Shown here: positions 3,097 to 56,272 of the stretch, piece after piece | Layout: each line of letters begins with the position of its first letter | Position numbering within the stretch: position 1 is the stretch's first letter | Origin: Cordylochernes scorpioides | Taxonomy: Eukaryota > Arthropoda > Arachnida > Pseudoscorpiones > Chernetidae | Assembly (NCBI GenBank): GCA_030710605.1 | Contig: CP092879.1 | Coordinates: forward strand, 27,211,982-27,275,981 | DNA: 64,000 nucleotides | Direction of reading: 5' to 3' | The notes under the pieces: model-generated | What the model was told of the DNA's origin: nothing | The model's input: the letters and a program-made list of their open reading frames with translations, nothing else | Database searches by the model: none | Made by a program: the position numbers and the translations under genes

Positions 3097-3153
3097 TTAG
3101 GATTTGAAACAGAAGAAATTTAGGCAAAAACTCAGCGAGAATACAATTGCGAA

Positions 3154-4458
3154 ATGTCTCGAGACGAGAGGATCCTCCAAAGAAAGTTAAGTTGCCAGAT
3201 AAGGCGAATTGATGGATTTATTGAAACTGTGGATTCAATTATTGAGGCAGGTGAAACAGTACGCTTAGAAATAATGGGTGAAGAATTAAAGGAGATCAAA
3301 GAAAAAATTGAGAAACTCTACGATGGGCTGTTTTCTTTGGATGAAGTTGATATAGATAGAGAAAGTGAGGCATATGATAGTTCAATGAACAAGATTGGAA
3401 GCTTGAGGGTAAAAATAGAAAATAAAAGAAAACTCAAAGACAAACTGGCGGACATAAAGCCAAATGGCTCTCAGGCAAATATAAAATTGCCTCAATTTGA
3501 CTTGCCGATATATGATGGAGATATGGGCACTTGGATCAACTTCAAAGAGCTATTCCTCACCACCATCGATGCACATCCAGGGTTAACTAATATACAGAAG
3601 TTACAATATTTGAATTCTGCAGTAAAAGGCGAAGCGGCCAGATTAATAAGGGGTTTCCCTTTACTAAGTGAAAATTATGGCCAAGCATGGAGTACACTGT
3701 TATCAAGATTTGATAACCCGAGAGAGCTAGCTTATGCCCAGGTGTCAAAAATCTTTTCTCTCCGGGCAATTAAGAATCCATCGGCTAAGTGTCTCCATGA
3801 ATTCATGGATGTTTGTAATGAAGCCATAAGAAACTTAGAAACGCTGGAATTGAAAAGAAATCAATTAGTGGATGTGATCCTGGTGCACTTCCTCCAGCAG
3901 AAGTTGAGTGAAAATCTAAGGTTGGATTGGGAACTGTCAGTGGACAACACTCTTCCATCTTATGACAAGTTCATAGCGTTCATTTCCAGACATGCGAGAA
4001 GCATGTCTTGTGCTGTCAAGGAATGTTCAAAAAAGGAAGAAACCACCGGATCGAGATTTCCCAAATGCCAAAGCTACGGGATGCTAATTGAGAGTTCGGA
4101 CACTTGCATATTATGCAAATCTAAGCATCATCCACTATACATGTGCAACTTATTTTGCAAAATGCCTTTAAAAGAAAAATTAAATGTAGTAAAGAGTCAT
4201 AAATTGTGCTTCAATTGCTTGAGGAAAGGCCATTTCTCATGGAATTGTAGGCTGAACCAACGATGCAAAGTATGCAAGGGGAAGCACCACACGATGATTC
4301 ATTATGATAAACCGAGCACGGAAGGCGCTTCGGCCCAAGTTGAGAACACAACTCCGAAGGAACATGAAAGTGCTATCAATTTGACTAATACTCAACAGGC
4401 AAACTGCAATGATAGCCACGTACTACTCGCAACAGCTGGAATCAAGATAAAAAATTGA
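3154..4458 (+). CDS. gag: BEL/Pao Gag region
   Basis: 434 codons. Residues 1-105 are charged and helical. Residues about 112-260 show the DUF1759-type capsid region of BEL/Pao elements (LPQFDLPIYDGDMGTW). A C-x2-C-x4-H-x4-C zinc knuckle lies at about residues 352-365 (CFNCLRKGHFSWNC), followed by a second cysteine/histidine cluster (CKVCKGKHH) for RNA binding. The first ATG after the primer site is taken as start. The frame ends at TGA 4456-4458, just before the protease. BEL/Pao Gag and Pol normally share one frame, and the downstream pol is in the same frame here. The TGA is therefore either a nonsense mutation or, less likely, a read-through stop. Confidence 0.88.
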   Translation: MSRDERILQRKLSCQIRRIDGFIETVDSIIEAGETVRLEIMGEELKEIKEKIEKLYDGLFSLDEVDIDRESEAYDSSMNKIGSLRVKIENKRKLKDKLADIKPNGSQANIKLPQFDLPIYDGDMGTWINFKELFLTTIDAHPGLTNIQKLQYLNSAVKGEAARLIRGFPLLSENYGQAWSTLLSRFDNPRELAYAQVSKIFSLRAIKNPSAKCLHEFMDVCNEAIRNLETLELKRNQLVDVILVHFLQQKLSENLRLDWELSVDNTLPSYDKFIAFISRHARSMSCAVKECSKKEETTGSRFPKCQSYGMLIESSDTCILCKSKHHPLYMCNLFCKMPLKEKLNVVKSHKLCFNCLRKGHFSWNCRLNQRCKVCKGKHHTMIHYDKPSTEGASAQVENTTPKEHESAINLTNTQQANCNDSHVLLATAGIKIKN

Positions 4459-6255
4459 CTCGGAAAGTTATGCACCTGCAGAGCCCTACTGGACAGCGGT
4501 TCCCAAGCCACTATGATAACAAAAGGATGCTGCGAAAGATTGGGACTTGTCCAAAGGAAATCAGATCGGATGATAATAGGGGTTGGAAACACACCAGTGC
4601 AGCATTCTTCATCGACAGTAAGTGTGACATTTTGTCCACTGAATAATTCTGAGGAATTCTCGGTAGAGGCAGTAGTCACGGGAGTGCTCACTTCAGAAAT
4701 TCCGAACTTCAGGTTGAAAGACCCTAATTGGCCAACTTTGAAGAACCTCAAATTGGCAGACCCAGAGTTCTACATACAAGCCCCAATAGATATGATATTG
4801 GGAGCAGATATATACACTGAACCTATGTTGAATGGCCCTATATCTCTCGGAGAAGGATTGCCAATGGCTATTAATACAAGACTAGGTTGGGTACTTCTAG
4901 GAAAACTCATGGGAACATCGGAGAGTAATACAGAAGTCTGTAACCTGAGTTTACAATCTGAACCAGAACTAGAATTCGTAATGAAAAGATTCTGGGAAAT
5001 TGAATCTGTGCCGTCACCGGATCTTTGTACACAGGACGAAGATTGTGAAAGTTTATTTTCGAATAACCATGGCAGAGATAGCCATGGAAGGTATTGGGTA
5101 AAATTGCCATTCAGACAACATCGACCGCTTCTGGGTGAATCAAGAGAAAAAGCTTTAAGAAGGTTCCTTTTGTTGGAAAGAAAATTGTGTAAGAATGTGA
5201 AATTATATGACCAATACCGGGGATTCATGAAGGAATATGAACACTTAAACCACATGGAAAGGGTCCCAATTGCAGAAGTGAAGCGAGAATTGTGCAGATG
5301 CTATTACATGCCTCATCATCCAGTAATTAGAGAGCAATCCACTACAACAAAAATGAGAGTTGTGTTTGATGCATCAGCTAAATCTGAAAATAATGTTTCT
5401 TTAAATCAATTTTTGCACAAGGGACCAAAAATCCAACAGGATGTATTTTTCATTCTCCTCAGATTCAGAACGTATCCTGTCGCCATAACTGCTGATATAG
5501 AAAAGATGTACCGCCAGATAAGAATTCATCCAGAAGATGCGGACTATCAGAGGATATTGTGGAGACCATCGCCAGAAGAGCCTGTGGTGGACTATCGACT
5601 ACTGACTGTTACCTATGGTACAACTTCGGCTCCATTTTTGGCAATGAGAACATTACAACAGTTAGCAGAAGATGAAGGCCAAAATTATCCTGAAGCTTCT
5701 AGGGTGACCTTGAATGATTTCTATGTCGATGATCTGCTAACAGGAGCTCAAACGATTGCTGAAACCAAAGAACAAATAGACCAATTAAAAGACTTAATGA
5801 AAAAGGGAGGGTTTCACTTAAGAAAGTGGAATTCAAATTGCCACGAGATAGTGTCTCATGTCGAGGAAATAAACGAAGAGAAGAAAATTAACTTGGAGAA
5901 AGGAGCCATATCCAAGATTTTAGGAATTGTATGGGATCATGTACAAGATACGTTTAGAGTTAATATAACTCTTCCTGAAGAAGTTGTTACCAAAAGAGAT
6001 CTTCTCTCCAATATTGCGAGGATTTTCGATCCAATTGGTTTCCTCTCACCTACTACAGTGGCTTTGAAAATAATAATGCAGGAGTTATGGAGAGGTGGGA
6101 CAGGCTGGGATGAGCATATTCCGAACGACATCAAGGAAAAGTGGAATAATTTTAGAGCCGAATTACTAAAATTAGGGGATTTGAGTATCCCAAGATACGT
6201 ATGGGCATGTGAAAAGGATCGAGATGTTCAACTCCACGGATTTTGTGACGCGTAA
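4459..6255 (+). CDS. pol: BEL/Pao Pol: protease, reverse transcriptase, start of RNase H
   Basis: Reading on in frame from the Gag stop; the first ATG is at 4513, inside the protease. The protease active-site triplet Asp-Ser-Gly is encoded at 4492-4500, upstream of that ATG, so translation must come from Gag. The RT carries VVFDAS, AITADIEKMYRQI and the catalytic YVDD at 5722-5733. The Peptidase_A17/RNase H region follows (HGFCDA), where TAA at 6253-6255 stops the frame right after the first RNase H aspartate. The downstream part continues in the same frame, so a single nonsense change is the simplest reading. As it stands, no complete Pol can be made. Confidence 0.88.
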   Translation, partial: LGKLCTCRALLDSGSQATMITKGCCERLGLVQRKSDRMIIGVGNTPVQHSSSTVSVTFCPLNNSEEFSVEAVVTGVLTSEIPNFRLKDPNWPTLKNLKLADPEFYIQAPIDMILGADIYTEPMLNGPISLGEGLPMAINTRLGWVLLGKLMGTSESNTEVCNLSLQSEPELEFVMKRFWEIESVPSPDLCTQDEDCESLFSNNHGRDSHGRYWVKLPFRQHRPLLGESREKALRRFLLLERKLCKNVKLYDQYRGFMKEYEHLNHMERVPIAEVKRELCRCYYMPHHPVIREQSTTTKMRVVFDASAKSENNVSLNQFLHKGPKIQQDVFFILLRFRTYPVAITADIEKMYRQIRIHPEDADYQRILWRPSPEEPVVDYRLLTVTYGTTSAPFLAMRTLQQLAEDEGQNYPEASRVTLNDFYVDDLLTGAQTIAETKEQIDQLKDLMKKGGFHLRKWNSNCHEIVSHVEEINEEKKINLEKGAISKILGIVWDHVQDTFRVNITLPEEVVTKRDLLSNIARIFDPIGFLSPTTVALKIIMQELWRGGTGWDEHIPNDIKEKWNNFRAELLKLGDLSIPRYVWACEKDRDVQLHGFCDA

Positions 6256-8316
6256 AGTGTAGCTTATTCGGCTGTGTGCTACTTAAGAACAGTCTCTCTG
6301 GATGGACAAGTCCATATATCAATGCTTGCAGCAAAAACCAGAGTTGCCCCATGTAAGTCTCTAACTCTACCAAGATTGGAATTGTGCGCGGCTCTCCTCC
6401 TGTCTCAGCTCTACAGATCTGTTGTTGATTCATTGAAGATTGATATTGGCAGGACATATTTGTGGTCAGATTCTCAGATCTCATTGAGTTGGATCAAATC
6501 GGATCCTAACAGATGGAAGACCTTTATACACAATAGAGTTGTGAAAATACAGCAACTGTCTGACAGAAACTCATGGCGTCACGTGTCTGGGAAGGATAAT
6601 CCCGCCGATTGTGCCTCTAGGGGAATAATGCCTGCTGCGTTATCTGGACATACACTGTGGTGGCAAGGACCGACTTGGTTGAAAGATAACAACTTTGTTC
6701 AGAATCAGGATAATTGCTATGGCCGAGAATGCCACGAGGAAGAAAAAGTAGCCTTAGCTTTCCAGTCCCGAGTTTCAGTCTGTCCAGAAATTGTAACAAA
6801 ATATTCCACTTTTATCAAGACGAGGCGAATCATAGCCTGGTGTTTGAGATTCATCACTAACTGTCGGGTGTCGCTGAAGAAAAGAGAAATTGGAACATTG
6901 TCGAAGAAGGAGTTAGAAAATGCAGTGATTAGGATTATTGGATGGATTCAGGAGGACGAATTCGGAGAAGAAATGCAGGATCTAAGAAATACAGGACATG
7001 CTTCAAGAAAAAGTAGAATTTTGCAGCTTAATCCTTTTATAGATGCATCTGGGATGTTAAGAGTAGGTGGTAGGATTCAGTTCGCGAATGTAAGCCCTGA
7101 TCAAAAATTCCCACTGTTATTACCGAAAAATCATCACTTTACCAAATTAATAATACTTCATTTTCACACGAGATATTTGCATGCTGGTCCACAGCTGGTC
7201 TTATCTCTAATACGAAATAGTTATTGGATCATGGGGGGTAGAGACATTGTAAGAAGAATCATTAAACAGTGTATAACCTGCTTCAGATTCAGGGCAAAAA
7301 CTGCAGTACAAATTATGGGGAATTTGCCTGCTGATAGAGTAAATCCATCAAGACCGTTTACCAAGACTGGAGTCGATTTGGCAGGACCTTACGAAATAAA
7401 ACCAAGTCTGACTAGATCGAAAGGGATGATCAAATGCTATGTGATTCTCTTTGTGTGTTTTTCGGTCAAGGCAATTCATTTGGAGATGGTGACTAGTCTC
7501 TCAACCAGTTCATTTATTGCAGCTCTCAGGAGGTTTATATCTCGTAGAGGAAAACCATCAAAAATTTACTCAGACAATGGAACGAACTTCAGAGGAACCG
7601 AAAGCTTCATGAAGAAACAATATAAATTAATGAATTCAAAGGAGACTAAAGACTTTTTAGCAGAAGAGTTTATAGAGTGGCATTTCATTCCTCCATCAGC
7701 TCCACACTTTGGAGGACTTTGGGAGGCAAACATCAAATGCTTAAAGGGTCATCTGAGCAAGGTAATAAAGTCATCACTTTTAAATATTGAGGAATTCATC
7801 ACACTACTCTGTCAAGTTGAGGCTTGCCTTAATTCCAGACCGTTAGTAGAGTTAAGTCCCGACCCTAACGATCTTCGAGCTTTGACTCCGGGACATTTCT
7901 TGATTGGCTCCCCTCTGATTGAGGACCCAGGATTGCAAAATTATGAGCGAGTAGATTTACGGTCAAGATGGAATATGGTACAAGGTCTGAGGAACTCTTT
8001 CTGGTCAAGATGGACAAGAGAGTACATTAACTCTTTGCAACAGAGAAATAAATGGAGGTTGTCACAAGACAATTTGAAGCCTAATCAGTTAGTGCTAATA
8101 AAAGAAGATAACCTTCCACCTCTACAGTGGCGTCTGGCCAGGATCCTCGAGGTATATCCGGGCTCTGACCAGAAGGTGCGAGTTGCCCAAGTTCGGGCTG
8201 CTACCGGAGTCTACCTACGACCTATTACGAAGTTGGCTCCGCTTCCCTTCAAATCTGAACCAGGGTTCAGCGGCCGGGGGGAGTATGTTCCAGCCTTAAA
8301 TATGCAAAATTGTTAG
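6256..8316 (+). CDS. pol: BEL/Pao Pol: RNase H and integrase
   Basis: This is the in-frame continuation after the TAA; the first ATG is at 6274. The RNase H region includes TYLWSDSQISL and DNPADCASRG. The integrase has an HHCC zinc domain (HFHTRYLHAG ... CITC). Its catalytic D,D,E core reads GVDLAGPYE, YSDNGTNFRG and GGLWEANIK. The C-terminal DUF5641-like tail (WRLARILEVYPG) is typical of BEL/Pao. The frame overlaps the 3' LTR start (8286) and ends at 8316. All catalytic residues I looked for are present, so only the upstream stops disable it. Confidence 0.88.
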   Translation, partial: SVAYSAVCYLRTVSLDGQVHISMLAAKTRVAPCKSLTLPRLELCAALLLSQLYRSVVDSLKIDIGRTYLWSDSQISLSWIKSDPNRWKTFIHNRVVKIQQLSDRNSWRHVSGKDNPADCASRGIMPAALSGHTLWWQGPTWLKDNNFVQNQDNCYGRECHEEEKVALAFQSRVSVCPEIVTKYSTFIKTRRIIAWCLRFITNCRVSLKKREIGTLSKKELENAVIRIIGWIQEDEFGEEMQDLRNTGHASRKSRILQLNPFIDASGMLRVGGRIQFANVSPDQKFPLLLPKNHHFTKLIILHFHTRYLHAGPQLVLSLIRNSYWIMGGRDIVRRIIKQCITCFRFRAKTAVQIMGNLPADRVNPSRPFTKTGVDLAGPYEIKPSLTRSKGMIKCYVILFVCFSVKAIHLEMVTSLSTSSFIAALRRFISRRGKPSKIYSDNGTNFRGTESFMKKQYKLMNSKETKDFLAEEFIEWHFIPPSAPHFGGLWEANIKCLKGHLSKVIKSSLLNIEEFITLLCQVEACLNSRPLVELSPDPNDLRALTPGHFLIGSPLIEDPGLQNYERVDLRSRWNMVQGLRNSFWSRWTREYINSLQQRNKWRLSQDNLKPNQLVLIKEDNLPPLQWRLARILEVYPGSDQKVRVAQVRAATGVYLRPITKLAPLPFKSEPGFSGRGEYVPALNMQNC

Positions 8317-8801: not shown

Positions 8802-9885
8802 ATTCCAAAGGGCTTGTGGCTTGATGCAATCAAAGAAATGTTGAAGGCTGTGTGTAATAATCCTTTATGTAAATAGGTGACATCTAAGAAGTTTGATGAT
8901 TTATTCTGGATCATTCCAAAGAGCTTGTGGCTTGGCTGCAATCAAAGTGGCGTTGAAGACTGTGTGTGATAATCCTTTATGTAAATAGGTGACATCTAAG
9001 AAGTTTGATGATCCATTCTGGATCGTCAAAAAGAGCTTGTGGCTTGGATGCAATCAAATATATGTTGAAGACTGTGTGTGAGATAATCCTTTATGAAAAT
9101 AGGTGACATCTAAGAAGTTTGATGATTTATTCTGGATCATTCCAAAGAGCTTGTGGCTTTTATGGAATCAAAGATATGTTGAAGACTGTATGTGATAATC
9201 CTTTATGTAAATAGGTGACATCTAAGAAGTTTGATGATTTATTCTGGATCATTCCAAAGAGCTTGTGGCTTGGATGCAATCAAAGTGGTGTTGAAGACTG
9301 AGTGTGATAATTCTTTATGTAAATAGGTGACATCTAAGAAGTTTAATGATCCATTCTGGATCGTCAAAAAGAGCTTGTGGCTTGGATGCAATCAAATATA
9401 TGTTGAAGACTGTGTGTGATAATCCTTTATGTAAATAGGTGACATCTAAGAAGTTTGATGATTTATTCTGGATCATTCCAAAGAGCTTGTGGCTTGGATG
9501 CAATCAAAGTGGTGTTGAAGACTGAGTGTGATAATTCTTTATGTAAATAGGTGACATATAAGAAGTTTAATGATTTATTCTGGATCGTCAAAAAGAGCTT
9601 GTGGCTTGGATGCAATCAAATATATGTTGAAGACTGTGTGTGATAATCCTTTATGTAAATAGGTGACATCTAAGAAGTTTGATGATTTATTCTGGATCAT
9701 TCCAAAGAGCTTGTGGCTTGGATGCAATCAAAGTGGTGTTGAAGACTGAGTGTGATAATTCTTTATGTAAATAGGTGACATATAAGAAGTTTAATGATTT
9801 ATTCTGGATCATTCCAAAGATCTTGTGGCTTGGATGCAATCAAAGTAGTGTTGAAGACTGAGTGTGATAATCCTTTATGTACTTT
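8802..9885 (+). repeat. 112-bp satellite array, about ten monomers, dimeric higher order
   Basis: The marker GCTTGTGGC starts at 8812, 8923, 9035, 9149, 9261, 9373, 9485, 9597 and 9709, with a variant at 9821. That is a steady 112-bp period, 111-114 in the older monomers. Two monomer types alternate in the middle: one joined by GATCATTCC with CAAATATATG, the other by GATCGTCAAAAAG with CAAAGTGGTG. This gives a 224-bp higher-order unit at about 9241-9709. There is no coding content. The array ends abruptly at about 9885 inside a monomer. Confidence 0.92.
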
Positions 9886-11247: not shown

Positions 11248-11304
11248 CTACTCTGATCAAAAAGTTTGGACACTTTGCTCATAAAATCCTGAAAACTCAA
11301 TATA

Positions 11305-12736
11305 TACTCTATAACAAAAAAATCGACGCACCAAGGAGCAGTTGTCCGATTTATATGAAAATACGTAAACAAAGAGGTTTCGACCAAACATGCAAATGAT
11401 TGAAATTTGGTGGCCGATTTATGCAAAGCAAGAGCTCCAGCGCATCTGAACTTCGCATCCAGCACGAGCATTCTAGACTCAATATTCGGCACGGCACGAG
11501 CTGATTTTCAGAATTTCCGTTTAATATTTTAGCAGTATGCCTACTTCTACTGTATCAATGCCTCGCCGAAAGATTCGTGCTCATTACGAACATATGTCAG
11601 AGTTTGAAACTGGTCGTGCCATTGGATTGAAAGAGGCTGGTTGGTCTAATCGACTAATCGCGCGACATCTGTGTCGAAGTGATGCGGCTATTTGGCGATG
11701 TTGGCAAAAGTGGGTCAACAACGGAAGTACGAGTATGCAACGTCAAGACGGCAGCGGTCGACCAAGGGCAACAACAGAACTGGAGGACAGAGCAATTGTC
11801 AGAATGGCTGTCGCAGCACCGGAATCCACGTTATCTACCATCCAACGTGTGACCGGCACACAAGTGTCCAAAATGACCATCAACAGGCGACTGATAGAGC
11901 GGAATCTAAGAGCTCGCCGACCGTTACGATGCCTACCCCTCACACCCGTGCACCGACAAGTCCGACTACAGTGGTGTCGGGAGCGATCAACTTGGAACTG
12001 CGCTGAGTGGGGACGTATAGTCTTTAGTGACGAGTCCCGTTTCTTACTGTGTCATGACGACCGTCGCAAACGTGTCTGGAGACGTCCTGGGCAGCGTGTG
12101 GATCCTGGCCTTACCGTCGAACATCACACAAGTCCACAACAGGGCGTTATGGTCTGGGGTGCCATTTCATTTGATAGCAGGACCCCATTGGTAGTCCCCA
12201 TTCCTGCCACCCTGACAGCACAACGGTACGTAGATGACATTCTACGGCCTGTTTTGTTGCCGTTCCTCTCACATCACCCCGGGCTTACTTTTCAACAAGA
12301 TAATGCCCGGCCACACACGGCACGTGTTACTATGGATTGTCTTCAATCTTGCCGAACTCTTCCGTGGCCAGCAAGGTCGCCTGATCTCTCGCCCATAGAG
12401 CACATCTGGGACGTGATGGGAAGGCGATTGCAACCATCCCGGAATGTTGACTATTCAGCCCGACAGTTGGAGACAATTTGGCAAGAAATCCGGCAGCACA
12501 CTATCCGGAATCTTTATCAGTCCATGACACGCCGGGTGGCAGCCTGCATCCAGGCCAGTGGGGGTCCAACGACATATTGACATTCTCAATTTGTGACGAT
12601 CAAACTCTGAAATGACACAATTAATTGTTCTCAAATTTTAATCGTTTTTTTCCCATATACATGCTCTTTACATACACCAATTTTGTCCTAATCTGACAAC
12701 TCCTTCTTGGTGCGTCGATTTTTTTGTTATACAGTG
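11305..12736 (+). mobile_element. Intact Tc1-like transposon nested in the mariner
   Basis: A 1432-bp element with inverted repeats of about 45 bp sharing CTATAACAAAAAAATCGACG (left 11308) and its near-complement at the right end (about 12708-12736). TA is duplicated at 11303-11304 and 12737-12738. The uninterrupted mariner copy at 31347-32663 reads CAATATATTTTCTC at this place, which equals the flanks minus the element and one TA. One long transposase frame fills the middle. Structurally it could be mobile. Confidence 0.93.
11537..12580 (+). CDS. Tc1-like transposase, intact
   Basis: 347 residues, the usual size for Tc1 transposases (about 340). Domains in order: a paired-like helix-turn-helix pair at residues about 18-130 with a GRPR linker (SGRPRATTEL), then the catalytic DDE core. 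The catalytic residues are D in IVFSDESRF, D in FQQDNARPH and E in PDLSPIEHIWD. I count 32 residues between the second D and the E, against 34 in classical Tc1. A second ATG at 11558 (MPRRKIR) is an equally plausible start. The frame has no stops or shifts and sits between matching TIRs. The enzyme would bind those TIRs and cut and paste the element in the nucleus. Confidence 0.93.
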   Translation: MPTSTVSMPRRKIRAHYEHMSEFETGRAIGLKEAGWSNRLIARHLCRSDAAIWRCWQKWVNNGSTSMQRQDGSGRPRATTELEDRAIVRMAVAAPESTLSTIQRVTGTQVSKMTINRRLIERNLRARRPLRCLPLTPVHRQVRLQWCRERSTWNCAEWGRIVFSDESRFLLCHDDRRKRVWRRPGQRVDPGLTVEHHTSPQQGVMVWGAISFDSRTPLVVPIPATLTAQRYVDDILRPVLLPFLSHHPGLTFQQDNARPHTARVTMDCLQSCRTLPWPARSPDLSPIEHIWDVMGRRLQPSRNVDYSARQLETIWQEIRQHTIRNLYQSMTRRVAACIQASGGPTTY

Positions 12737-12883
12737 TATTTTCTCCCGGTTTGTGGCAAACGCAAGCGTCGCCCTTGGCTTGGAGACCTGCCAATTTTCA
12801 AAAATTACGCGCCACAACAGCGCGAGCAGCGGCTGTTCGAAGTGAAACCATTTTGCCCGTGCTTCGATTTCGTTAGTCACCGA

Positions 12884-23668: not shown

Positions 23669-24809
23669 CGAGGGCCATCCAATAAATAAGTTTCCCTATT
23701 TTTTAACAAATAAACCACATTATTTACAATTATGCAGTTATTTTATTTTCATTATACAACTCATAGACTACTTCTCTAAATAATCACCATTTCTGTCCAA
23801 ACATTTTTGGTACCGTTGTAGCAATTTTTTGATACCACTGTTGTACCAAGCCGTGTCCTGTCTTCGTAGCCAGTGGTTCTCCTCAGCCTGCACTTCGTCA
23901 TCATTCGCAAAGTGCTTGCCTCCAAGGTGCCACTTGAGTGCTGGAAAAAGATGGAAGTCGCTTGGGGCAAATTCCGGAGAATAAGGTGGATGTGTGAATA
24001 TTTCCCATTTGAAGTTTTCCATAGCCATAACTTTGCCTGCAGAGATTGTGACCTTCGCCTTTTTTGGTGCACTTTCCTCAGGCTTCTTCCACACCATGTT
24101 TTGTCGTTTTGTTTCAGGAGTTGAATGATGCACCCAGCTTTCATCTCCAGTGACAATACGGGGAAACAGTTGATCTCCATCTCTTTGATGCATTTCCAGG
24201 AAAGCTCGGGCTGCCTCCATCCGTTGTTGCTTGTGATTTTCCAAGAGCAAACGTGGGACCCATCTTGCGCAGACTTTGCGAAAATTCAAAATATCTGACA
24301 TGATTGTTCCAATCGAAGAGCGTCCAATTTCGATTCCAGGAGGCAGTCGAATCATTATTTCGTCAATGGTGACGCGGCGATCTGCTTCCACCACATTCCG
24401 AACAGCAGCAGCGGCTGCATTGTCCGTAGCAGTAACGGGCCTGCCGCTTCGCTCGTCATCATGCACGTTTTGCCGTCCTTCTAAGAACCATGAACGCCAT
24501 CGGCGAACCATTTGGATGCTCATACATTCTTCACCATACACTGACACTAAATTGCGATGAATATTGACCGCAGTTTCATTTTTCGCCGTGAAAAAACGAT
24601 TACAGAACGGAGTTCGCAAGTGGACACGTTCACCAGTGGTAGCTCCATGGAAACTGAAGCGCTACGGACTTGCGCGTACGAGTAGCGTGATTTTGAAGGT
24701 CACCAGCTTCCAACGCATCCTAGTGACCATTTCTTCTATACTAACTAATTTTTACAACGTTTCGTTTGCAGAAAAAAAATAGGGAAACCTATTTATTGGA
24801 CGGCCCTCG
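23669..24809 (-). mobile_element. Mariner element (copy b), internally deleted
   Basis: 1141 bp between TA 23667-23668 and TA 24810-24811. Inverted repeats CGAGGGCCATCCAATAAATA (left) and CGAGGGCCGTCCAATAAATA (right, minus strand). It sits in foldback family A; copies at 31240 and 47060 show the empty TA. The transposase frame is open but lacks a catalytic block. Confidence 0.9.
23768..24619 (-). CDS. Mariner-type transposase lacking the second catalytic Asp
   Basis: 283 codons without a stop. The N-terminal helix-turn-helix region (YGEECMSIQMVRRWRSWF), the SGRPVTAT linker and TGDESWVHHSTPE with the first Asp are present. After SAGKVMA the sequence jumps to ENFKWEIFTHPPYSP, so the segment that normally holds the HDN motif is gone, in frame. 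The third site reads YSPEFAPSDFHLFP with D kept. Family transposases are about 345 residues. The protein, if made, could bind DNA but not catalyse transposition; a repressor-like role is conceivable but speculative. Confidence 0.85.
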   Translation of the reverse strand: MRTPFCNRFFTAKNETAVNIHRNLVSVYGEECMSIQMVRRWRSWFLEGRQNVHDDERSGRPVTATDNAAAAAVRNVVEADRRVTIDEIMIRLPPGIEIGRSSIGTIMSDILNFRKVCARWVPRLLLENHKQQRMEAARAFLEMHQRDGDQLFPRIVTGDESWVHHSTPETKRQNMVWKKPEESAPKKAKVTISAGKVMAMENFKWEIFTHPPYSPEFAPSDFHLFPALKWHLGGKHFANDDEVQAEENHWLRRQDTAWYNSGIKKLLQRYQKCLDRNGDYLEK

Positions 24810-25022
24810 TATATTGGGAGGGCTTGGCTCATCAGTGGTGAACCCTCCCAGCGATTTCGCCAATTAAATCCACCAGACCGCTTCTCAGAGCTCTAATACT
24901 GTATTGGATAAAAGCAGAATGATCCAATACAGTATTAGAGCTCTGAGAAGCGGTCTGGTGGATTAAATTGGCGAAATCGCTGGGGGGGGTTCACCACTGA
25001 TGAGCCAAGCCCTCCCAATATA

Positions 25023-25420
25023 CAGGGTGATCCAAAAGTCCCGCACTATTTTAAAAAATAATAACTCCGCGAATATTTGCGCTAGAGCAATGCGGTAAGC
25101 ACCATTGTGTTCAGGATGCAATGGGATTTTTTATGGCAATAATGAAAAATTCGAAATTGATTTAGTTACAATTTTATTCACCAGATGGCGCTCTACCAGA
25201 ATCAGAGATTCAGCGGCCAAATTGTTTGATAAATTAAAAAAATATAACTGATCGACACGTATTTTTCCTTTTTGAATACCAGGAAAGAACACTAATAATT
25301 TCAAATAACAAATTAATAAAACACCACTTCGCCAAAAGCATGAAGAATTGGTTAACGATTTTCAAATACAATCAGAGATATGTAAAATAGGTAAATGCAA
25401 ATTAAAACATGTAGCAAAAA
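25023..25420 (+). repeat. Left 398-bp TIR of the 5.27-kb element
   Basis: Complementary to 29898-30295. It includes an ACCAGATGGCGCTC sequence at 25180-25193 (CTCF-like core) and an open-frame-like stretch. That stretch is an 82-codon frame in the right copy (30176-29928, minus; ITDRHVFFLFEYQERTL) and is broken in this copy. I do not recognise that peptide. Confidence 0.88.
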
Positions 25421-25559
25421 GAAAATTGATATTTTAGATACGGTTTGTTTCCGAAGATAATAAATTTCTAATATTTTTAATTCAACTCTCACTCAATATC
25501 GATTATATTTATTTTAATTCATTTGAAAAATATGTATCTATCTCTGATAATTTATTTTA

Positions 25560-26396
25560 CTCTGGAATGCCGTTGTTGTTGTCGTGTCCAATAAAGAGCC
25601 TTAGATGTATCCATGCATCTCCATCACAGCAGCAGCAATGTCCACTATCTTGGGTGTGTAAAGCTGCTGCTCTGGGTCTATGTCAATTTTCTGCAAGGCT
25701 GCGGCCATTGCTAGCTATGAGAATATGTGGGTAGGTGTTAGATCCACACCAGGACAGTTGTTGCATGTCCTATAGGTTATTGTGCCATCTGGATGTATTG
25801 TCATTCCTTTATAGTGTTTTGTTCTAAGTCTTGTTATAGTTTTTGTCATATTTCTCTCAGAGTTTATTTCGCATTTTGATCTTTTCTTATTTTTTTTTGT
25901 TTAATTATCTTGTATTTTGACAAAGAATCAGCGTCAAATAATGACATTTGTTCTTTCCTTTGGCTCAACTTTCTGGCTTCCTTTGCCAATTCAAATGCCA
26001 TTTCATTACCCCCGATCCCAGCATGGGCAGGGATCCAATGTAGAATGCAGTTATTCTCCAATGGTTCCAGTCGGGTAAGTAACGAGTGTATTTTCTGTGT
26101 GATTTTAGTATTGCCCTTCTGAATTGCTTCTAGAGCGGATATGGAGTCTCTGTATATTAAATGAATCCTTCTGCTTGATGCAGGGATGGATGGTTAAGGC
26201 ATACATCAAGGGCTTTCCAGATAGCTGTCAGTTCACAAGTGAAGTTTGACGAAATCTGTCCTGCTCCTTCTTTGATTTTGATGTTTGTTTCATCTTGCAG
26301 TATTATGTTACTTCCGGCCCCTCTATTACTCAGGGTAAGGTCTGAAGATCCATCTGTATATGCTGTTAAAGGGTGTGGCCTAGCATTTTTAATCAA
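25560..26396 (-). pseudogene. LINE 3' part: RNase H and C-terminal zinc motif
   Basis: On the minus strand from 26396: LTAYTDGSSDLT (first RNase H Asp), TCELTAIWKALDVC (Glu), a frameshift near 26157, YRDSISALEAIQ (Asp), and LHWIPAHAGIGGNEMAFELAK. Then come a tail with RLRTKHYKG-like sequence and a C-x2-C...H motif (TCNNCPG). The RT is absent. It abuts, in opposite orientation, endonuclease/RT sequence at 26400, which suggests one inverted copy (see findings). Confidence 0.75.
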
Positions 26397-26399
26397 GAA

Positions 26400-27815
26400 T
26401 TTGTACTATGAGGACATAGCCGTTAATATTAAAAACACATTAGACCTCGAAGCCCAAGGTATCAAAGTCTACCTCAATCAAAACAAAGCCATCAACATAT
26501 ACAATATGTATCACCCTCTAAACAATACATTTATTGACGATGGAACAATGGCTCAATTTCTTACACAGACAACACTATTATTGTAGGTGACCTTAATGCC
26601 AAACATCAACTATGAGGATGTTCCACGCCAAACCCAAGAGGCAAAATACTATCAAACATATTTAACGACAATGCCTTCATTTGCTTAAATGATGGGAATC
26701 CTACCCATCATTCCTACAAGCTATAATACTGCACAAGCCCTTGATATAAGTTTTTACTATCCTGACATTTTCCACAAATGAAAATAGCAAATATTAAAAA
26801 GTTTTGGAAGTGATCATTTGCCTAATTTGATAGAAATTAGCACCAAGACCAAAACTAGCTATATTAAGAAAAATTCTGGAACTTCAAAAAGGCTAATATG
26901 ATATCTTTCGAAAACACCATTATTGAAGCAGCCAAAGTTTCAATACCAAGAGGTATAATAATTTTCCACAAATGAAAATAGCAAATATTAAAAAGTTTTG
27001 GAAGTGATCATTTGCCTAATTTGATAGAAATTAGCACCAAGACCAAAACTAGCTATATTAAGAAAAATTCTGGAACTTCAAAAAGGCTAATATGATATCT
27101 TTCGAAAACACCATTATTGAAGCAGCCAAAGTTTCAATACCAAGAGGTATAATATTAAGAAATAATTTCCAAATTATACACACCAGGCAAAAAATATTCA
27201 AACACTTATAACTAAAAGAAATGAACTACAAAAAAGTGCACCCAAAACCAAACAAATTGTAGAACTGAACTGAACATTGTGATTGCAAAAATAAAAAGAT
27301 TATACGTAAATGTGAAAAGGGAAAAATGGAAACAAACCTATGAAAACCTGAACCCAAGAAACCCAAATACAAAACTTTGGAATTTGGCAAAACAAATTGA
27401 CAGAGTCCAGCCACAAACTGAAAACACAAATATGATTAAGAATACAGATGGTACACCAGCAACTAATGACAAAATAGCTGCCAATCTTTTAGGTAATTCA
27501 TATCAAATAAGTAGTAAAATCAAGGTTGAAAAAAGGCCCGAAAGATTATTCATGACTAAAAATGTCACCAGCACTCATAATATTTTCCATGAAAAAAATC
27601 AATATGAAAGAGCTAGCTTATGCATTAGAAAACACTGACCTAAACAAGACTCCTGGGCCAGATGGAATCCATGGCCGAATGATATCAAACTTGGGCAAAA
27701 TTGGCAAAGAAAGACTTCTTAATATTTTCAATAACTCCTGGAAAACTGTAAAATTGCCTCAAGACTGTAAAAATGCAACAATAATTCCCATTAAAAACTT
27801 GACAAATCTGCTGAT
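26400..27815 (+). pseudogene. LINE 5' part: endonuclease and N-terminal RT fragment
   Basis: 26401-26586 encodes part of an apurinic-like endonuclease (INIYNMYHP). After a frameshift come VGDLNAKH (catalytic GDxN) and NDGNPTHHS near 26585-26710, also broken. From 27279 the RT N-terminal region appears, with TPGPDGIHGRMI and NATIIPI typical of I/Jockey RTs, ending near 27815 where a mariner begins. A 194-bp block within it is duplicated in tandem (26767-27154). No intact frame remains. Confidence 0.7.
26767..27154 (+). repeat. Exact 194-bp tandem duplication
   Basis: 26767-26960 and 26961-27154 read identically over their full length, both starting ATTTTCCACAAATGAAAATA and ending AGAGGTATAATA. 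It lies in decayed LINE sequence with no other identical repeats, so it is either very recent or an assembly artefact. Confidence 0.93.
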
Positions 27816-28752
27816 GTGAACGACGAAGAGCGTGCCGGACGCCCGAGCACTTCAACAACAGACGAAAAAATTAATGAAGTGGAGAAAATGATATTGGCCA
27901 ATCGTCGAATCACCGTTAGAGAAGTTGCTGAGGACCTAAACATATCGATTGGTTCGTGCCATTCGATTTTTATCAATGATTTGGGCATGAGACGGGTCGC
28001 CGCGAAATTCGTACCAAAATTGCTCAATTGCGACCAAAAACAGCATCGCATGAACATTGCTAATTAGATGTTGGACTCTGTCCGCGACGACCCAAATTTG
28101 CTCCAGAGGGTCATAACTAGTGACGAAGCGTGGGTTTATGGTTATGACGTGGAAACCAAAGCTCAATCATCTCAATGGAAGCTGCCGCACGAACCAAGAC
28201 CGAAAAAAGCGCGCCAAGTTCGGTCGAATGTGAAAGTTTTGCTGACAGTTTTCTTCGATTGCAGGGGCGTGGTGCATCATGAGTTCTTACCACAGGGTAG
28301 AACGGTCAATAAGGAATATTACCTGCAAGTTATGCGCAATTTGCGCGAAGCAATCCGCCAGAAACGCCCGGATTTGTGGAAGAACAAAAATTGGCTTTTG
28401 CACCACGATAACGCCCCTGCTCACACATCGTTGCTTGTGCGCGACTTTTTGGCCAAAAACAACACACTAATAATGCCGCGCAGCCACCGTATTCCCCAGA
28501 TCTAAACTGAAGAGGCCCATGAAAGGACGACATTACGCTACGCTTGACGAGATAAAGACGGCATCGAAGAAAGAGCTGAAAAAGATTTTTTTTTAAATGA
28601 TTTTTTGAAGTGCTTCGAAGATTGGAAAAACCGTTGGCACAAGTGTATAATATCTCATGGGATTCTTTGAAGGGGACAAAATAAGTATTCATGAATAAAT
28701 AAATAATTTTTGAAAAAACACAAAAGTCGCGATACTTTCTGAACACACCTCG
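27803..28752 (+). pseudogene. Mariner (copy c), 5'-truncated and decayed
   Basis: It starts abruptly inside the transposase (NDEERAGRPSTST) next to LINE sequence. Continues through the second helix-turn-helix, stop TAG at 28065-28067, then TSDEAWVYGYD and HHDNAPAHTS. A frameshift near 28470 and a deletion after SPDL remove the third catalytic Asp. The right inverted repeat (TCGCGATACTTTCTGAACAC) ends at 28752 with TA at 28753-28754. It is a different subfamily from copies a and d. Confidence 0.85.
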
Positions 28753-28754
28753 TA

Positions 28755-29530
28755 AACTTCTTTCTTGGTCACTGGGGTCCTCAGTGATCTACCTCTAAAG
28801 CATCCTGTCTGCGAACTCATTACCTTCGATGAGGCTGTGTCTCCTAAACCAAGGGAGCTCCGGATCCCGCGTCATCATCTTCAGCTCCTGGATTATTTTA
28901 TGCGCGAGTTGACCTTTCTCCAGATTGATGGAGACGAGGGCCGACATACAATCTGAATAGAGGCGGTCCGGACTGAAGTTCTTCTCGGCACACACTCTGA
29001 GGGCTACCCTGATCGCAACCAGCTCGGCTGAAAAGACCAATTCGTCCACTCTGAGTGTTAAACTTTCTTGGAAGATCAGCTCTCCATTAGTGAATATCAC
29101 TACCCCAGCTCCAGTATTGGTTCCAGACTTACTACCATCAGTGAAAACCTCCGTGCCAATCCCCGACGGCCCTCCAGGACTCCAATTCCACTTTGGCAAC
29201 CACTGCTGAGGCTTCCTTGGGTCCCTCTTCGATTCCAGGGCCCCCGCTTTAAGTCCCAGGGCATCTTCCCTGTTCTCCGAGATCTTCTGTCTGTGGTCTC
29301 CTCCTCTAGTTTCAATCCCAGGGGAATAAGCCCAGCGAGGACCAAAAAGGCCTCACTGCTAGTAGTGCGATAATCCCCCTGTGATTCTGAGTGCCGCTGT
29401 CCTCTGCACTCTCTCTAGAGTTGTTGCCACCTTCTGATCCCTGTTTCGGCGCCACCAAGCCCCGGAAGCATATATCAAGATTGGCTCGACACAGGAGAGG
29501 CAGAGGTTCCTAAAAATAGTACCCACGTTT
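28755..29530 (-). pseudogene. LINE fragment: RT thumb and RNase H
   Basis: On the minus strand from about 29530: NLCLSCVEPILIYASGAWW (RT thumb), ERVQRTAALRITGG, two stops, then RNase H with EVFTDGSKSGTNTGAGVV, FSAELVAIRVALRV and LYSDCMSALVSI. The end EGNEFADRML is cut by the mariner right end at 28752. The GC-rich codon use differs from the AT-rich surroundings. It resembles the LINE at 36354-41100 in type but is not the same copy or obviously the same family. Confidence 0.75.
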
Positions 29531-29897
29531 TTAAACGCAAAAGGTCGATCTAAAAATTATTTTTATTTGAGGGGACACATTTTTAAAATTGTGTACAGTA
29601 TAATAAACAATGATAACATTTGACAAGCCCATAGGATATTTGGAGTAAAGTACGACAAATATATTTTGTCACTCCCCTCTATATTTCATTTGTTGGATCA
29701 TGACAAATATTCAGTTAAATAGTCAAGGGTCGCCAATCAGTCAAGAAACTACACATTTCTTATAGCAAGAAATCCTATTAATAGTGCCATCATAATTTTT
29801 GGTACTATATTAACATTTCAAAAATTCGTGTATTGATATCAGCAGTGTTTTTCAAACATGCAATCTATTTCACAAAACCCCATATAAAATATAAATA

Positions 29898-30295
29898 TTT
29901 TTGCTACATGTTTTAATTTGCATTTACCTATTTTACATATCTCTGATTGTATTTGAAAATCGTTAACCAATTCTTCATACTTTTGGCGAAGTGGTGTTTC
30001 ATTAATTTGTTATTTGTAATTATTAGGGTTCTTTCCTGGTATTCAAAAAGGAAAAATACGTGTCGATCAGTTATATTTTTCAATTTATCAAACAATTTGG
30101 CCGCTGAATCTCTGATTCTGGTAGAGCGCCATCTGGCGAATAAAATTGTAACTAAACTCAATTTCGAATTTTTCATTATTTGCCATAAAAAATCCCATTG
30201 CTTCTGAACACAATGGTGTTTACCGCATTGCTCTATCGCAAATATTCGCGGAGTTATTAATTTTTAAAATAGTGCGGGACTTTTGGATCACCCTG
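29898..30295 (-). repeat. Right 398-bp TIR of the 5.27-kb element
   Basis: Inverted copy of 25023-25420. It contains the CTCF-like core at 30125-30139 (minus strand, CCAGATGGCGCT). The 82-codon open stretch at 30176-29928 is unbroken only in this copy. Confidence 0.88.
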
Positions 30296-30397
30296 TATTT
30301 TTCATCGCAGTAAGGACAGTAGAAGTTCGTTTTATGTATAAAAGAAACATTCGCGCTTTTAAATCCTTTTATTTTAACTATTTTATAGCTCCAATAT

Positions 30398-46939: not shown

Positions 46940-47170
46940 TCATTCAAACTTCTACTGTCTTTACTGCGATGAAAAACTATATTGGAAGGGCTTGGCTAAT
47001 CAGTGGTGACCCTCCCAGCGGTTTCGCCACTGATGAGCCAAGCCCTCCCAATATATATTTTTCTTCGCAATAAGGACAGTAGGAGTTTGATTGATGTGTG
47101 AAATAAACATTCGAGTCTTGATGTTTCATTTGTTGAACAGATGTTGTATTGTAAATAGATGGCGCGTTAT
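46940..47170. repeat. Foldback family A, copy 5
   Basis: CTTCTACTGTCTTTACTGCGATG (46950) and CGCAATAAGGACAGTAGGAG (47068) form the outer pair; TATTGGAAGGGCTTGGCTAATCAG and its mirror CTGATGAGCCAAGCCCTCCCAATA the inner pair. A TAGATGGCGCG core ends the copy at 47157-47167. It shows the uninterrupted CCCAATATATATTTTTC site used as empty-site evidence for the 5.27-kb element. Confidence 0.8.
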
Positions 47171-52286: not shown

Positions 52287-55200
52287 TTATTCTCGGGTAA
52301 TAAATGGTCGAAGTTGAGATATGTGAACGCGTCTTGCTTGCTTTTGGTCTTTCAGAGAGATATCGTAGGTTACATCAGATATCTTTTTTTGAATGACAAA
52401 GGGTCCTTCATATTTTGGTGATGTCTTGATGAGACGAGGGTCGTTGAAGGCAATTTTTCTTATGACTAAGTCTCCTTCTTTAAAGACATACTTGGGGTGA
52501 TGGCTATCGTGTTTAATCTTCCACTTACTTCTAATTTGTTCTGTCCGCAGGCTAGCTTTCTTCCTGGCTTCTTCAATTGTAATTGGAGTTTGGTCGGCAA
52601 ATTCGGGTACATTACCGATTCCATACATTAAGAAAAGCGGTGAAAAACCAGTCACGTCATGTGGTGTGGAATTATAATTTTTGACAACTTGCGGTAACAA
52701 TGAGCTCCATTTACATCTAGGTTTCTCTAGAACAGCTATTCTCAGTTTTGTCATTATCGTATCATTTAATTTCTCACAAATGCCATTGCACTGAGGATGA
52801 TAAGGCGAAGTATATGTGTGTTTAATTCCTTGTAAAGAAAGAAATTTGTTGAACTCTTTTGATATAAAATTTTTGCCATTATCTGTTAAGATAGTATTGA
52901 TCGAATTAACAGATTTGATTATCTTATCAAGACATTGAGTGACAGTTTGAGCAGTGTTTGTTATTGTGGGATATGCCCATAGATAACGAGTTGCGTGATC
53001 AACAAAAACTTGAATGAATTTATGCTTTGTGTTAGCTGCTGCTGTTCCCAGTACAATAGTGTCACAACCGATCATTTGTAATGGTTGGATATTTGACGTT
53101 GGAGTGATCATTTCTCCTAAAGTTGGTTCATGTCTGACCTTCACTAGTTGACAAGATTTACAAGATCGAACATAATTCTTGATATCAGTTGTTATTCCTT
53201 TCCACCAATAACATTGAGTTATAAGTTTGCATGTTTTGGTTATTGATGGGTGACTCAATGAATCGTGATATTCTTCCAATATTTTTTTGGTAAGCGAGTT
53301 TGGGACAACTGCTTTAAAAACTCCTTTTTGTTTGATCATTACCACACCGTCGTGAGTGTGGGAATTTTTCAAGAAACTCAAATCTGAATTTTGTTGGTGT
53401 TCTTGAAGTTCTTGAGTTGCAATGTTAACAACTGGGAGTCTTGATAGGGCGTCAACATGAGTTTGTTGCTTTCCAGAACGATGAACGATGTTACATGATT
53501 TCGAGGATAAACTAAGAATCCATCTAAAATACTTAGGTTTCGGTTTCTTCATGGTGAAAAGCCATTGGAGCGCCGCATGATCAGTGATGATTTCAAATGG
53601 TTGGTTTTCTATGTATACATGAAAGTGATCAGTTGCTTGTATCACGGCTAGGCATTCCATCTCATAAGCAGAATAATTCTCTTGGTGTGGTTGCAGTGTT
53701 TTGGAGTAATAAGCAATTACATGTTCCTCATTGTCTGGACCAATTTGTTTTAGAATTGCTCCAATTCCATATTTGGAGGCATCTGTATAAACTTTAGAGG
53801 GGTAGTCCGGGTTGTAAATAGCAAGGACAGGTTTTGTAGATAGTGCCATTTTAAGTTTAGCGAATGACTCCTCTATTTCCTCATTCCAGATGAAGGGCTG
53901 ATTCTTCCGAGTGAGTCGAACCAAGGGGAATGAAATTTTAGAAAAGTCCTTCACAAATTTTCTGTAATAATTTGCCAATCCCATGAACTGACGAACTTTC
54001 TTTACAGTATCAGGTCTTGGAAAGTCTTGAATAGATTTTACTTTTCCTGGATCAGGTTTTAATTGATTGTGACTGATGATATGTCCGAGGTATTTTACTT
54101 CAGTTCTTCCAAAAATACATTTCGACAATTTTAATTTCATGTTGTACTGTCTTAATTTGTCAAAAACTTTACTAAGAAGCTCTATGTGCTCTTGCCATGT
54201 TTTCGTGTACACCAATATGTCATCTTGGAAAGAGCAAGTTCCTTTCCATAATAATTCACCTAGAATATGTTGGATTATCCTTTGAAACGTTGAAGCAGCA
54301 TTTTTTAAACCAAAGGGCATCACTAAAAACTCATAATGACCATCGTTTGTGACGAATGCAGTTTTTTGAATAGATTGCGGGTCCATTTCGATCTGCCAAT
54401 AACCCCATGCAACATCAAGGGTAGAGAAGAATCTGGATCCATGCAATCGATCAAACATGTCCTGTATGTGAGGTAGGGGTTGCCTGTCATCCAGTGTGAT
54501 CTCATTAAGACGTCTGTAATCAATGCACATCCTTTTATTTCCATCCTTCTTGGGAACCATAACAACAGGAAATGCCCAAGGAGAATCTGAAATTCTTATT
54601 AACTTGTGTTCGAGAAGTTCTTTAACTTGTTCAGCTATCTCTTCATACTCTTTTAGAGGACGACGATAGGGTCTAAGAGAAATTGGTTGTTCACTTTTCG
54701 TGATGATCTTATGTTGTATAGCTACTTTTCCCAAATCAATAGCATGCTGAGAAAATACATTCCTATTGTGTTCAAGTAATTCTTTTAATTCATGTTCTCT
54801 TATCTCTTCTAGATGATTTACAAGAATTGGATTTTGTAATCCATCAAATTTGGTGTAAATTGTTTTGTCTCTGACATCTATTAAAAGATTAAAAAGAGAT
54901 GCAACATCTAATCCGATCAAGAGTGGATATTTAAAGTTCTTCATTACATGGAGAGTTACAGGTTTAATTAGTTTATCTATTCTTACCTTGGTCTGAAGGC
55001 TTCCACATGTCCTGGTAACACCATCCGCTTGGCTGATGTGAATGTCTGAATTTGGTTGAAGTTGAAGACGGGTTCGCTTGAACAATCGCCAATTGATTAT
55101 TGATACTGTTGCTCCAGTATCCACAAATGCTTGCGCAGGAATTCCATTTACTTCAACACTTATGTTGATAAGCTTGAAAGCTCCTTGTGTAGGGGTATTT

Positions 55201-55922: not shown

Positions 55923-55935
55923 TTTTTCTTTCCGT

Positions 55936-55953
55936 ATCCTGTCGGCTGCGCCA
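55936..55953 (-). promoter_or_regulatory. Primer-binding site resembling tRNA-Ser 3' end
   Basis: On the minus strand, TGGCGCAGCCGACAGGAT lies two bases inside the 5' LTR. It is close to the TGGCGCAGTCGGTAGGAT-type site that 17.6/297-group elements use with tRNA-Ser (from memory). Confidence 0.6.
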
Positions 55954-55955
55954 AA

Positions 55956-56272
55956 TGCCACGTTTTTATTTTTAAAACGCTAATTTTAGTTTAGTAAAAC
56001 TTTATTTTTAAAGTTTATTATTTTAAAAGTGAAATGTTTGTTAATGAAATAGACATTTTGCCTAAACTCATTTATTGCTGCTTTCTTTTACAAGCCATTT
56101 GTTTATGTATATTATTACATATCGTTTTTATTGAGTTTTTTTTACTAATTTAGTATGTACATCATTGACTTTTAATGAATGGAAAATAAAAATGAAAATA
56201 AACACATGAAAAATTAAAATAACATTTTAAAGGAATTTATGTACAATTGAAAATTGTTTCTGTAACGTCTCA
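55956..56272 (-). repeat. 5' LTR of the intact Gypsy element
   Basis: 317 bp, identical to 51950-52266 by eye. U3-R-U5 should hold the promoter; I see no strong TATA in this AT-rich LTR. Confidence 0.93.

What the first reader, a model, noticed from the sequence alone, without database searches (positions are those of the whole stretch)
25023..30295. Unclassified 5.27-kb element with 398-bp TIRs enclosing rearranged LINE and mariner fragments
Two 398-bp inverted copies starting CAGGGTGATCCAAAAG bound a 4.5-kb interior, with TA on both sides. The site is in a repeat whose unoccupied form is at 47042-47070. The interior has no transposase of its own but holds three different element fragments. 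It may be a large composite or capture-type transposon family not described before; alternatively two MITEs in inverse orientation trapped the DNA between them.
Basis: partly seen in the sequence, partly recalled or inferred. Interest (0 to 1): 0.75.

Follow-up and report, generated by a model that had tools for sequence, protein, structure and literature searches.

The report
LINE-loaded mariner-type DNA transposon
A cut-and-paste DNA transposon in what looks like a pseudoscorpion genome swallowed other jumping genes, and the same scrambled insert also occurs elsewhere in that animal's genome, so a broken retrotransposon may be hitch-hiking on it.

Summary
Two 398-bp inverted copies (386 of 396 aligned bases identical) bound 25023-30295, with TA on both sides, inside a palindromic repeat. 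Five arms of four other copies of that repeat run through the same point without the insert, differing from the joined flanks by up to 3 bases there. The inner borders of the arms show no second terminus, so these are terminal inverted repeats of one insertion, not two MITEs.

The interior can be explained stepwise. One Jockey-type LINE lies in 5'-inverted form. A second LINE carries a mariner inserted at TA. A deletion fuses mariner to LINE.

The inversion junction is not private to this locus. Seven gene models of Cordylochernes scorpioides (the likely host) span it in the same frame and one in antisense, on six chromosome-sized contigs. Those that cover it share a 75-nt deletion with the window. 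So a defective, rearranged interior has multiplied.

Best reading: a non-autonomous Tc1/mariner-type element with long TIRs, loaded by nested insertions and then moved as a composite, as published for MER6. Not shown: that the other junction copies lie between the same TIRs. The genome search did not complete (21 calls).

The parts
25021..25022 (.). TA target-site duplication, left
   Evidence: Read directly; unoccupied copies of the target repeat run through this point.
25023..25420 (+). Left terminal inverted repeat, 398 bp, starts CAGGGTGATCCAAAAGTCCCGC
   Evidence: 386 of 396 aligned bases identical to the right arm.
25421..25550 (.). AT-rich stretch without similarity, probably the element's own interior (right limit approximate)
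   Evidence: No blastx hit to the 128 fetched proteins at E 1e-3; ORF crossing it has no Pfam match above a curated cut-off.
25551..26366 (-). 3' part of a Jockey-type LINE: RNase H to C-terminus (protein-supported 25604-26363)
   Evidence: maps to residues 771-1003 of P0010, in which the EN/RT part precedes it.
26364..26368 (.). Inversion junction between the two parts of that LINE
   Evidence: same junction in 7 C. scorpioides gene models in this frame and in P0005 in antisense.
26368..27801 (+). EN and first part of RT of the same LINE family, 5'-truncated, frameshifted, with a 75-nt deletion
   Evidence: maps to residues 156-502 of P0010; deletion.
26767..27154 (+). Perfect 194-bp tandem duplication inside the LINE part
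27813..28752 (+). 5'-truncated mariner with its 3' terminus present, followed by TA at 28753-28754
   Evidence: Transposase_1, E 7.6e-20; similar to other window mariners; terminus read by eye.
28755..29510 (-). Second LINE: RNase H and preceding region, interrupted by the mariner (limit at 29510 approximate)
   Evidence: RNase H; 72-90% to six C. scorpioides models.
29511..29897 (.). AT-rich stretch without similarity, probably the element's own interior (left limit approximate)
   Evidence: No hit; ORFs tested have no Pfam match.
29898..30295 (-). Right terminal inverted repeat, 398 bp
30296..30297 (.). TA target-site duplication, right
24810..25022 (.). Target: near-perfect 213-bp palindrome of a repeat family; the element sits at its right outer TA
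   Evidence: 24808-25022 folds at -124.6 kcal/mol, z -29.7.

Best explanation
This is one insertion of a non-autonomous Tc1/mariner-type (TA-target) DNA transposon with unusually long 398-bp terminal inverted repeats. Shown: a single TA-flanked unit in a repeat that exists unoccupied elsewhere in the window, with arms in which no inner terminus was found. Inferred: it was once an element of about 1.3 kb or more (two arms plus the two dissimilar inner stretches). A Jockey-type LINE inserted into it in 5'-inverted form (twin priming). A second LINE landed beside it, and a mariner landed at a TA in that second LINE. One deletion then removed the mariner's start, the second LINE's end and the distal RT part, leaving the present mosaic. 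Shown: the inversion junction is also present in eight other gene models of the likely host, and those covering the place share a private deletion. Inferred: they got there because a transposase supplied in trans moved the loaded element as a composite, so that dead LINE sequence multiplied by cut-and-paste.
For: TIR, TA and empty sites. No inner terminus: the 40-bp end against the rest of the left arm scored no better than shuffles (43% of 500 forward, 85% of 500 reverse). Canonical LINE order EN/RT then RNase H in P0010. Junction in P0057, P0065, P0080, P0086, P0100, P0110, P0121: 7 of the 73 places in the 128 fetched proteins that match my EN-motif expression (65 canonical, 1 other); antisense in P0005; six contig lengths of 64.6 to 107.5 Mb. 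P0110 is 125 of 132 identical across the junction. The 75-nt deletion: present in P0065 and P0086 in frame and in P0100 in another frame, the three junction models covering the place, as in the window; 63 other proteins have the full 25-residue stretch, none of them a junction model. P0057 keeps the LINE up to residue 891 of P0037, before RNase H at 947, as twin priming predicts. P0005 and P0002 have the second LINE upstream of the first in the window's order. The TIR end resembles rosa DD41D ends: 20 of 5000 shuffles reach the score, the best of six families' ends compared (letters from PMC5490172).
Against: No other copy of the TIR was seen anywhere: not in the window, not by exact patterns in viral contigs or prokaryote contigs, and the arm's ORF had no protein hit. 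These collections hold little or no animal DNA, so this is weak. The junction copies are known only as gene models; their flanks are unread, so the vehicle is inferred. P0100 has only about 7 residues of the antisense side and P0121 about 14. No target-site duplications above 10 bp were found around the nested LINEs. Four of the six second-LINE models do not show the first LINE, and P0001 and P0006 join it to mariner sequence in another arrangement (by eye). Of the frameshift markers, RPERLFMT is also in two canonical models. The unoccupied copies are not letter-exact at the insertion point.
Confidence: 0.65

Rival explanations
1. An ordinary empty non-autonomous element inserted here, and the LINEs and mariner fell into it afterwards at this locus. 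The junction copies elsewhere spread by another route (segmental duplication or another carrier), and one such piece came to lie in this element.
For: Nested insertion is common in so TE-dense a stretch. The TIR of the other copies was not seen.
Against: It needs the same rearranged LINE to be mobile by some unknown means and to land inside this element. The two arms differ by 2.6% and the closest junction copy differs at 7 of 132 residues, which I estimate at 2-3% of bases, so both are of similar age.
Confidence: 0.23
2. Two separate 398-bp MITEs in opposite orientation trapped the DNA between them.
For: The arms are MITE-sized and no third long copy is in the window.
Against: No inner terminus was found in the arms. 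One TA pair brackets the whole unit, and unoccupied target copies join at that point within 3 bases. Two independent insertions would leave target-repeat sequence between them.
Confidence: 0.04
3. An active capture transposon family (Pack-type) that acquires fragments by copying during repair.
For: A mosaic interior of fragments from three elements, without recognisable flanking duplications.
Against: Each piece has a simple insertion history (5'-inverted LINE, truncated LINE, mariner at TA, one deletion), and P0057 and P0005 show fuller forms of the same order.
Confidence: 0.08

Closest known systems
MER6 / MER6A of mammals (PMC6887750)
   Same: Non-autonomous Tc1/mariner element with TA duplications into which a retroelement inserted, after which the composite diversified and multiplied.
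   Different: MER6 has 24-bp TIRs, is 865 bp long and carries a SINE; here the TIRs are 398 bp and the unit is 5.27 kb with LINE and mariner pieces. Amplification between the same TIRs is inferred here.
rosa (DD41D, Crmar2-like) mariner-like elements and their MITEs in aphids (PMC5490172)
   Same: Terminal letters (AAGGGTGTCTCAAAAAGAACGCCGGATTTRAA in Apismar4.1) align with this end; TA target.
   Different: rosa TIRs are about 28-32 bp; no transposase is present here to test membership.
LTIR clade (DD40-41D) in aphids (PMC5490172)
   Same: TIRs of 460-466 bp in TA-target elements; short non-autonomous derivatives exist.
   Different: Terminal sequences do not match better than shuffles.
Bari2/Bari3 of Drosophila (PMC4877112)
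   Same: Tc1-mariner superfamily elements with long inverted repeats of about 250 nt.
   Different: Bari ends hold three 18-nt direct repeats; a search for a repeat of the end motif within the arm found nothing above shuffles.

Membership tests
Tc1/mariner superfamily | TA target-site duplication | tested here: met
   TA on both sides; uninterrupted target copies align through the point within 3 bases.
Tc1/mariner superfamily | Terminal inverted repeats | tested here: met
   398 bp, 386 of 396 identical.
Tc1/mariner superfamily | DDE/D transposase belonging to these ends | not testable with these tools
   None recognised in this copy; the mariner fragment inside has its own, different terminus. 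The genome search did not complete.
rosa DD41D | Terminal motif | tested here: inconclusive
   Score 9; 20 of 5000 shuffles reach it. Terminal letters only.
rosa DD41D | Short TIR of about 28-32 bp | tested here: not met
   398 bp.
LTIR DD40-41D clade | TIR of about 460 bp | tested here: inconclusive
   398 bp, similar in scale.
LTIR DD40-41D clade | Terminal sequence of the aphid members | tested here: not met
   1570 and 1168 of 2000 shuffles reach the scores.
Pair of inverted MITEs | Each 398-bp unit has its own two ends | tested here: not met
   No terminus found at the inner border.
MER6-type composite | Retroelement nested in a non-autonomous mariner-type element | tested here: met
   LINE pieces between TA-flanked TIRs; the superfamily assignment itself rests on TA and TIRs.
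MER6-type composite | Many copies of the composite between the same TIRs | tested here: inconclusive
   Interior junction in eight other gene models; the DNA around them is unread.

The most novel reading that the evidence does not exclude
A family of large composite DNA transposons in a pseudoscorpion has turned a dead, 5'-inverted LINE into cut-and-paste cargo, so that one defective retrotransposon copy, with its private deletion and frameshifts, now sits on at least six chromosome-sized contigs and enters host gene models, one of them named POLR1A.
Probability: 0.5. Interest if true: 0.6.

Novelty: new variant of a known kind. Interest (0 to 1): 0.45.

Why it matters
If the vehicle is confirmed, it shows a route by which retrotransposon sequence that can no longer copy itself keeps multiplying, on a larger scale than the short SINE-carrying MER6. 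It also warns that LINE copy number in TE-dense arachnid genomes can include copies made by DNA transposons. The shared junction and the shared deletion give clean markers for tracing such a composite through a genome.

Tried and rejected
Two MITEs: rejected, see the rivals. Chance inverted repeat: rejected, 398 bp at 97% with an unoccupied site. A second transposase-binding repeat inside the arm: the 40-bp end against the rest of the left arm scored no better than shuffles. Target duplications around the nested pieces: nothing above 10 bp. Coding content: the arm and inner-stretch ORFs tested (one, six) had no Pfam match above a curated cut-off. Literature search by terminal letters: 70 papers hold CAGGGTGATCC; the 20 listed look unrelated by title. 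Literature search for AGATGGCGC: 239 papers, 15 listed, none used. Search for the host's genome papers: 17 hold the terms, 10 listed, none read. Other searches used to place the element: (listings), with PMC5490172, PMC4877112 and PMC6887750 seen in passages and one outline. No search covered Repbase or Dfam, so whether this TIR has a catalogue name is unknown.

Species: inferred from LINE matches to C. scorpioides models (72-90%, up to 95%); no tool names the window's source.

Correction made on re-check: my notebook calls the shared deletion 84 nt; counted it is 25 residues, 75 nt. My draft also overstated how exactly the unoccupied sites join; confidence was lowered from 0.66 to 0.65 for that.
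Full report
OBSERVATION. The two arms are real: 25023-25420 and 29898-30295 match as inverted repeats with 386 of 396 aligned bases identical, 10 substitutions and 4 gap columns. Beyond 398 bp the similarity decays. Both outer ends are flanked by TA. No other long copy of the arm lies in the window.

ONE INSERTION. The element lies at the outer TA of a 213-bp near-perfect palindrome (24810-25022; DNA fold of 24808-25022 is -124.6 kcal/mol against a shuffled mean of -25.1), whose repeat family has other copies in the window. When the two flanks are joined, they align through the insertion point with five arms of four other copies, at about 20.6, 47.05 and 46.95 (-) (two arms of one copy), 31.2 and 51.8 kb (-). 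None is letter-exact there: they carry 3, 2 and 1 extra bases, a substitution, and two missing bases respectively. No terminus was found at the inner border of the arms: the 40-bp end against the rest of the left arm scored no better than shuffles (forward 43%, reverse 85% of 500). So the 398-bp arms are TIRs of a single element, and the two-MITE reading fails.

HOST. The LINE pieces match gene models of Cordylochernes scorpioides (Pseudoscorpiones) better than anything else. In one search, 8 of 133 candidates reached E 1e-5 and the best six are this species (72-90% identity). In one search, 153 of 7995 scored candidates reached E 1e-5, 120 were listed, and the best 63 rows (P0009-P0071) are all this species. 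I take the window to be this species or close kin; no tool names it.

INTERIOR. Pfam finds RNase H in three ORFs on the minus strand (two just above the curated cut-off of 25.8 bits, one just below at 25.6) and a mariner transposase (Transposase_1, E 7.6e-20) on the plus strand. Mapped on the long C. scorpioides model P0010, the plus-strand part 26368-27801 is EN/RT (residues 156-502), and the minus-strand part 26306-25604 is RNase H to the C-terminus (771-1003) of the same LINE family; in P0010 they follow each other in that order. Here they meet head to head at 26364-26368. The other LINE (28755 to about 29510, minus strand) is broken by the mariner, whose 3' terminus ends at 28752 before a TA (read). 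The mariner lacks its 5' part, and that break joins the first LINE at about 27801-27813.

THE INTERIOR IS MULTI-COPY. The reading frame that crosses the inversion junction (antisense RNase H into EN) is present in C. scorpioides gene models P0110 (125 of 132 identical), P0057, P0080, P0086, P0121 and P0065 and P0100: 7 of the 73 places in the 128 fetched proteins that match my EN-motif expression, against 65 canonical and 1 other. P0100 has only about 7 residues of the antisense side and P0121 about 14. P0005 crosses the junction in the opposite sense (84% over 87 aa, of which 13 lie beyond the junction). These eight models lie on contigs of six different lengths, 64.6 to 107.5 Mb. They agree on a private lesion: a 25-residue (75-nt) deletion, also in the window, is in frame in P0065 and P0086 and in another frame in P0100, the three that cover the place, while 63 other proteins hold the full stretch and none of those is a junction model. 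Of two frameshift markers, PALIIF is in three junction models, one unclassified model and no canonical one; RPERLFMT is in three junction models but also in two canonical ones, so it is less clean. These are copies of one defective ancestor, not independent LINE insertions. P0005 and P0002 also have the second LINE upstream of the first in the window's order. The other four of the six second-LINE models do not show the first LINE, and P0001 and P0006 are joined to mariner sequence in an arrangement unlike the window (by eye).

HISTORY. In P0057 the EN/RT part continues from the same junction to residue 891 of P0037, before its RNase H at 947. That is what twin priming of one LINE predicts: the 5' part inverted, the 3' part upright, the two halves parting near one point of the transcript. 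In P0005 the second LINE runs on past the place where the mariner sits in the window. One deletion, from inside the mariner across the end of the second LINE into RT, then turns the fuller order into the window's. The stretches 25421-25550 and 29511-29897, without similarity to anything fetched, are probably remains of the carrier, which would have been about 1.3 kb or more. This paragraph is inference from order and orientation, and gene models may join exons that lie far apart.

HOW IT WORKS. TA duplications and terminal repeats point to the Tc1/mariner superfamily. The terminal letters resemble a rosa DD41D end of aphids (score reached by 20 of 5000 shuffles; five other ends compared, irritans and LTIR, are reached by 10 to 79% of 2000 shuffles; letters from PMC5490172, passages seen). 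The element codes for no recognised transposase of its own, so movement in trans is inferred. The arms differ by 2.6% and the closest junction copy by 7 of 132 residues; I estimate 2-3% at the DNA level, so the spread of the interior and the age of this insertion look alike. That fits transposition of the loaded element but does not prove it.

LIMITS. The census that would decide (arms against interiors in the whole genome) could not be run: the genome search failed to answer in 21 tries. Exact-pattern searches of viral and prokaryote contigs found nothing, as expected for animal DNA. The arm's ORF had no protein hit (only proteins of 0.55 to 1.75 times its length are candidates). The evidence for spread is from gene models; only the junction alignments themselves are contiguous.

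KNOWN KINDS. MER6 of mammals is the closest published case found: a mariner-type MITE into which a SINE inserted and which then multiplied (PMC6887750; outline with abstract and passages). Long TIRs are known in the LTIR clade (460-466 bp, PMC5490172) and in Bari2/3 (about 250 nt, PMC4877112, passages). The combination of long TIRs, a 5-kb size and a multiplied 5'-inverted LINE did not come up in my searches; these do not cover repeat databases or most subscription journals.

Noticed in passing
23669-24809: A different mariner-like element (1141 bp, TIRs starting CGAGGGCC, TA on both sides) sits at the mirror-image TA in the other arm of the same palindromic target repeat, so both arms were hit at the same position by different TA-target elements.
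   Followed up: partly
17518, 23572, 25183, 30126, 41187, 47157, 51935, 56323, 57202, 63891: The 9-mer AGATGGCGC occurs 10 times against a mean of 0.08 in 100 shuffles, in several unrelated repeat contexts including both TIRs. It resembles the core of the Drosophila CTCF site (recalled, not tested); mobile elements may be spreading such sites.
   Followed up: partly
26767-27154: Perfect 194-bp tandem duplication inside an otherwise decayed LINE piece: recent, or an assembly artefact.
   Followed up: no
8802-9881: Tandem array of a 112-bp unit, 9.6 copies, 89% matches, just after long open frames at 3124-8313 that look like a BEL/Pao element by eye.
   Followed up: no
52290-55979: A single 1230-residue open frame that looks, by eye, like a gypsy-type retrotransposon gag-pol; possibly a young copy.
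   Followed up: no
11299-12742: A 351-residue open frame that looks, by eye, like a Tc1-type transposase between 53-bp inverted repeats 89% identical: a possibly intact element.
   Followed up: no
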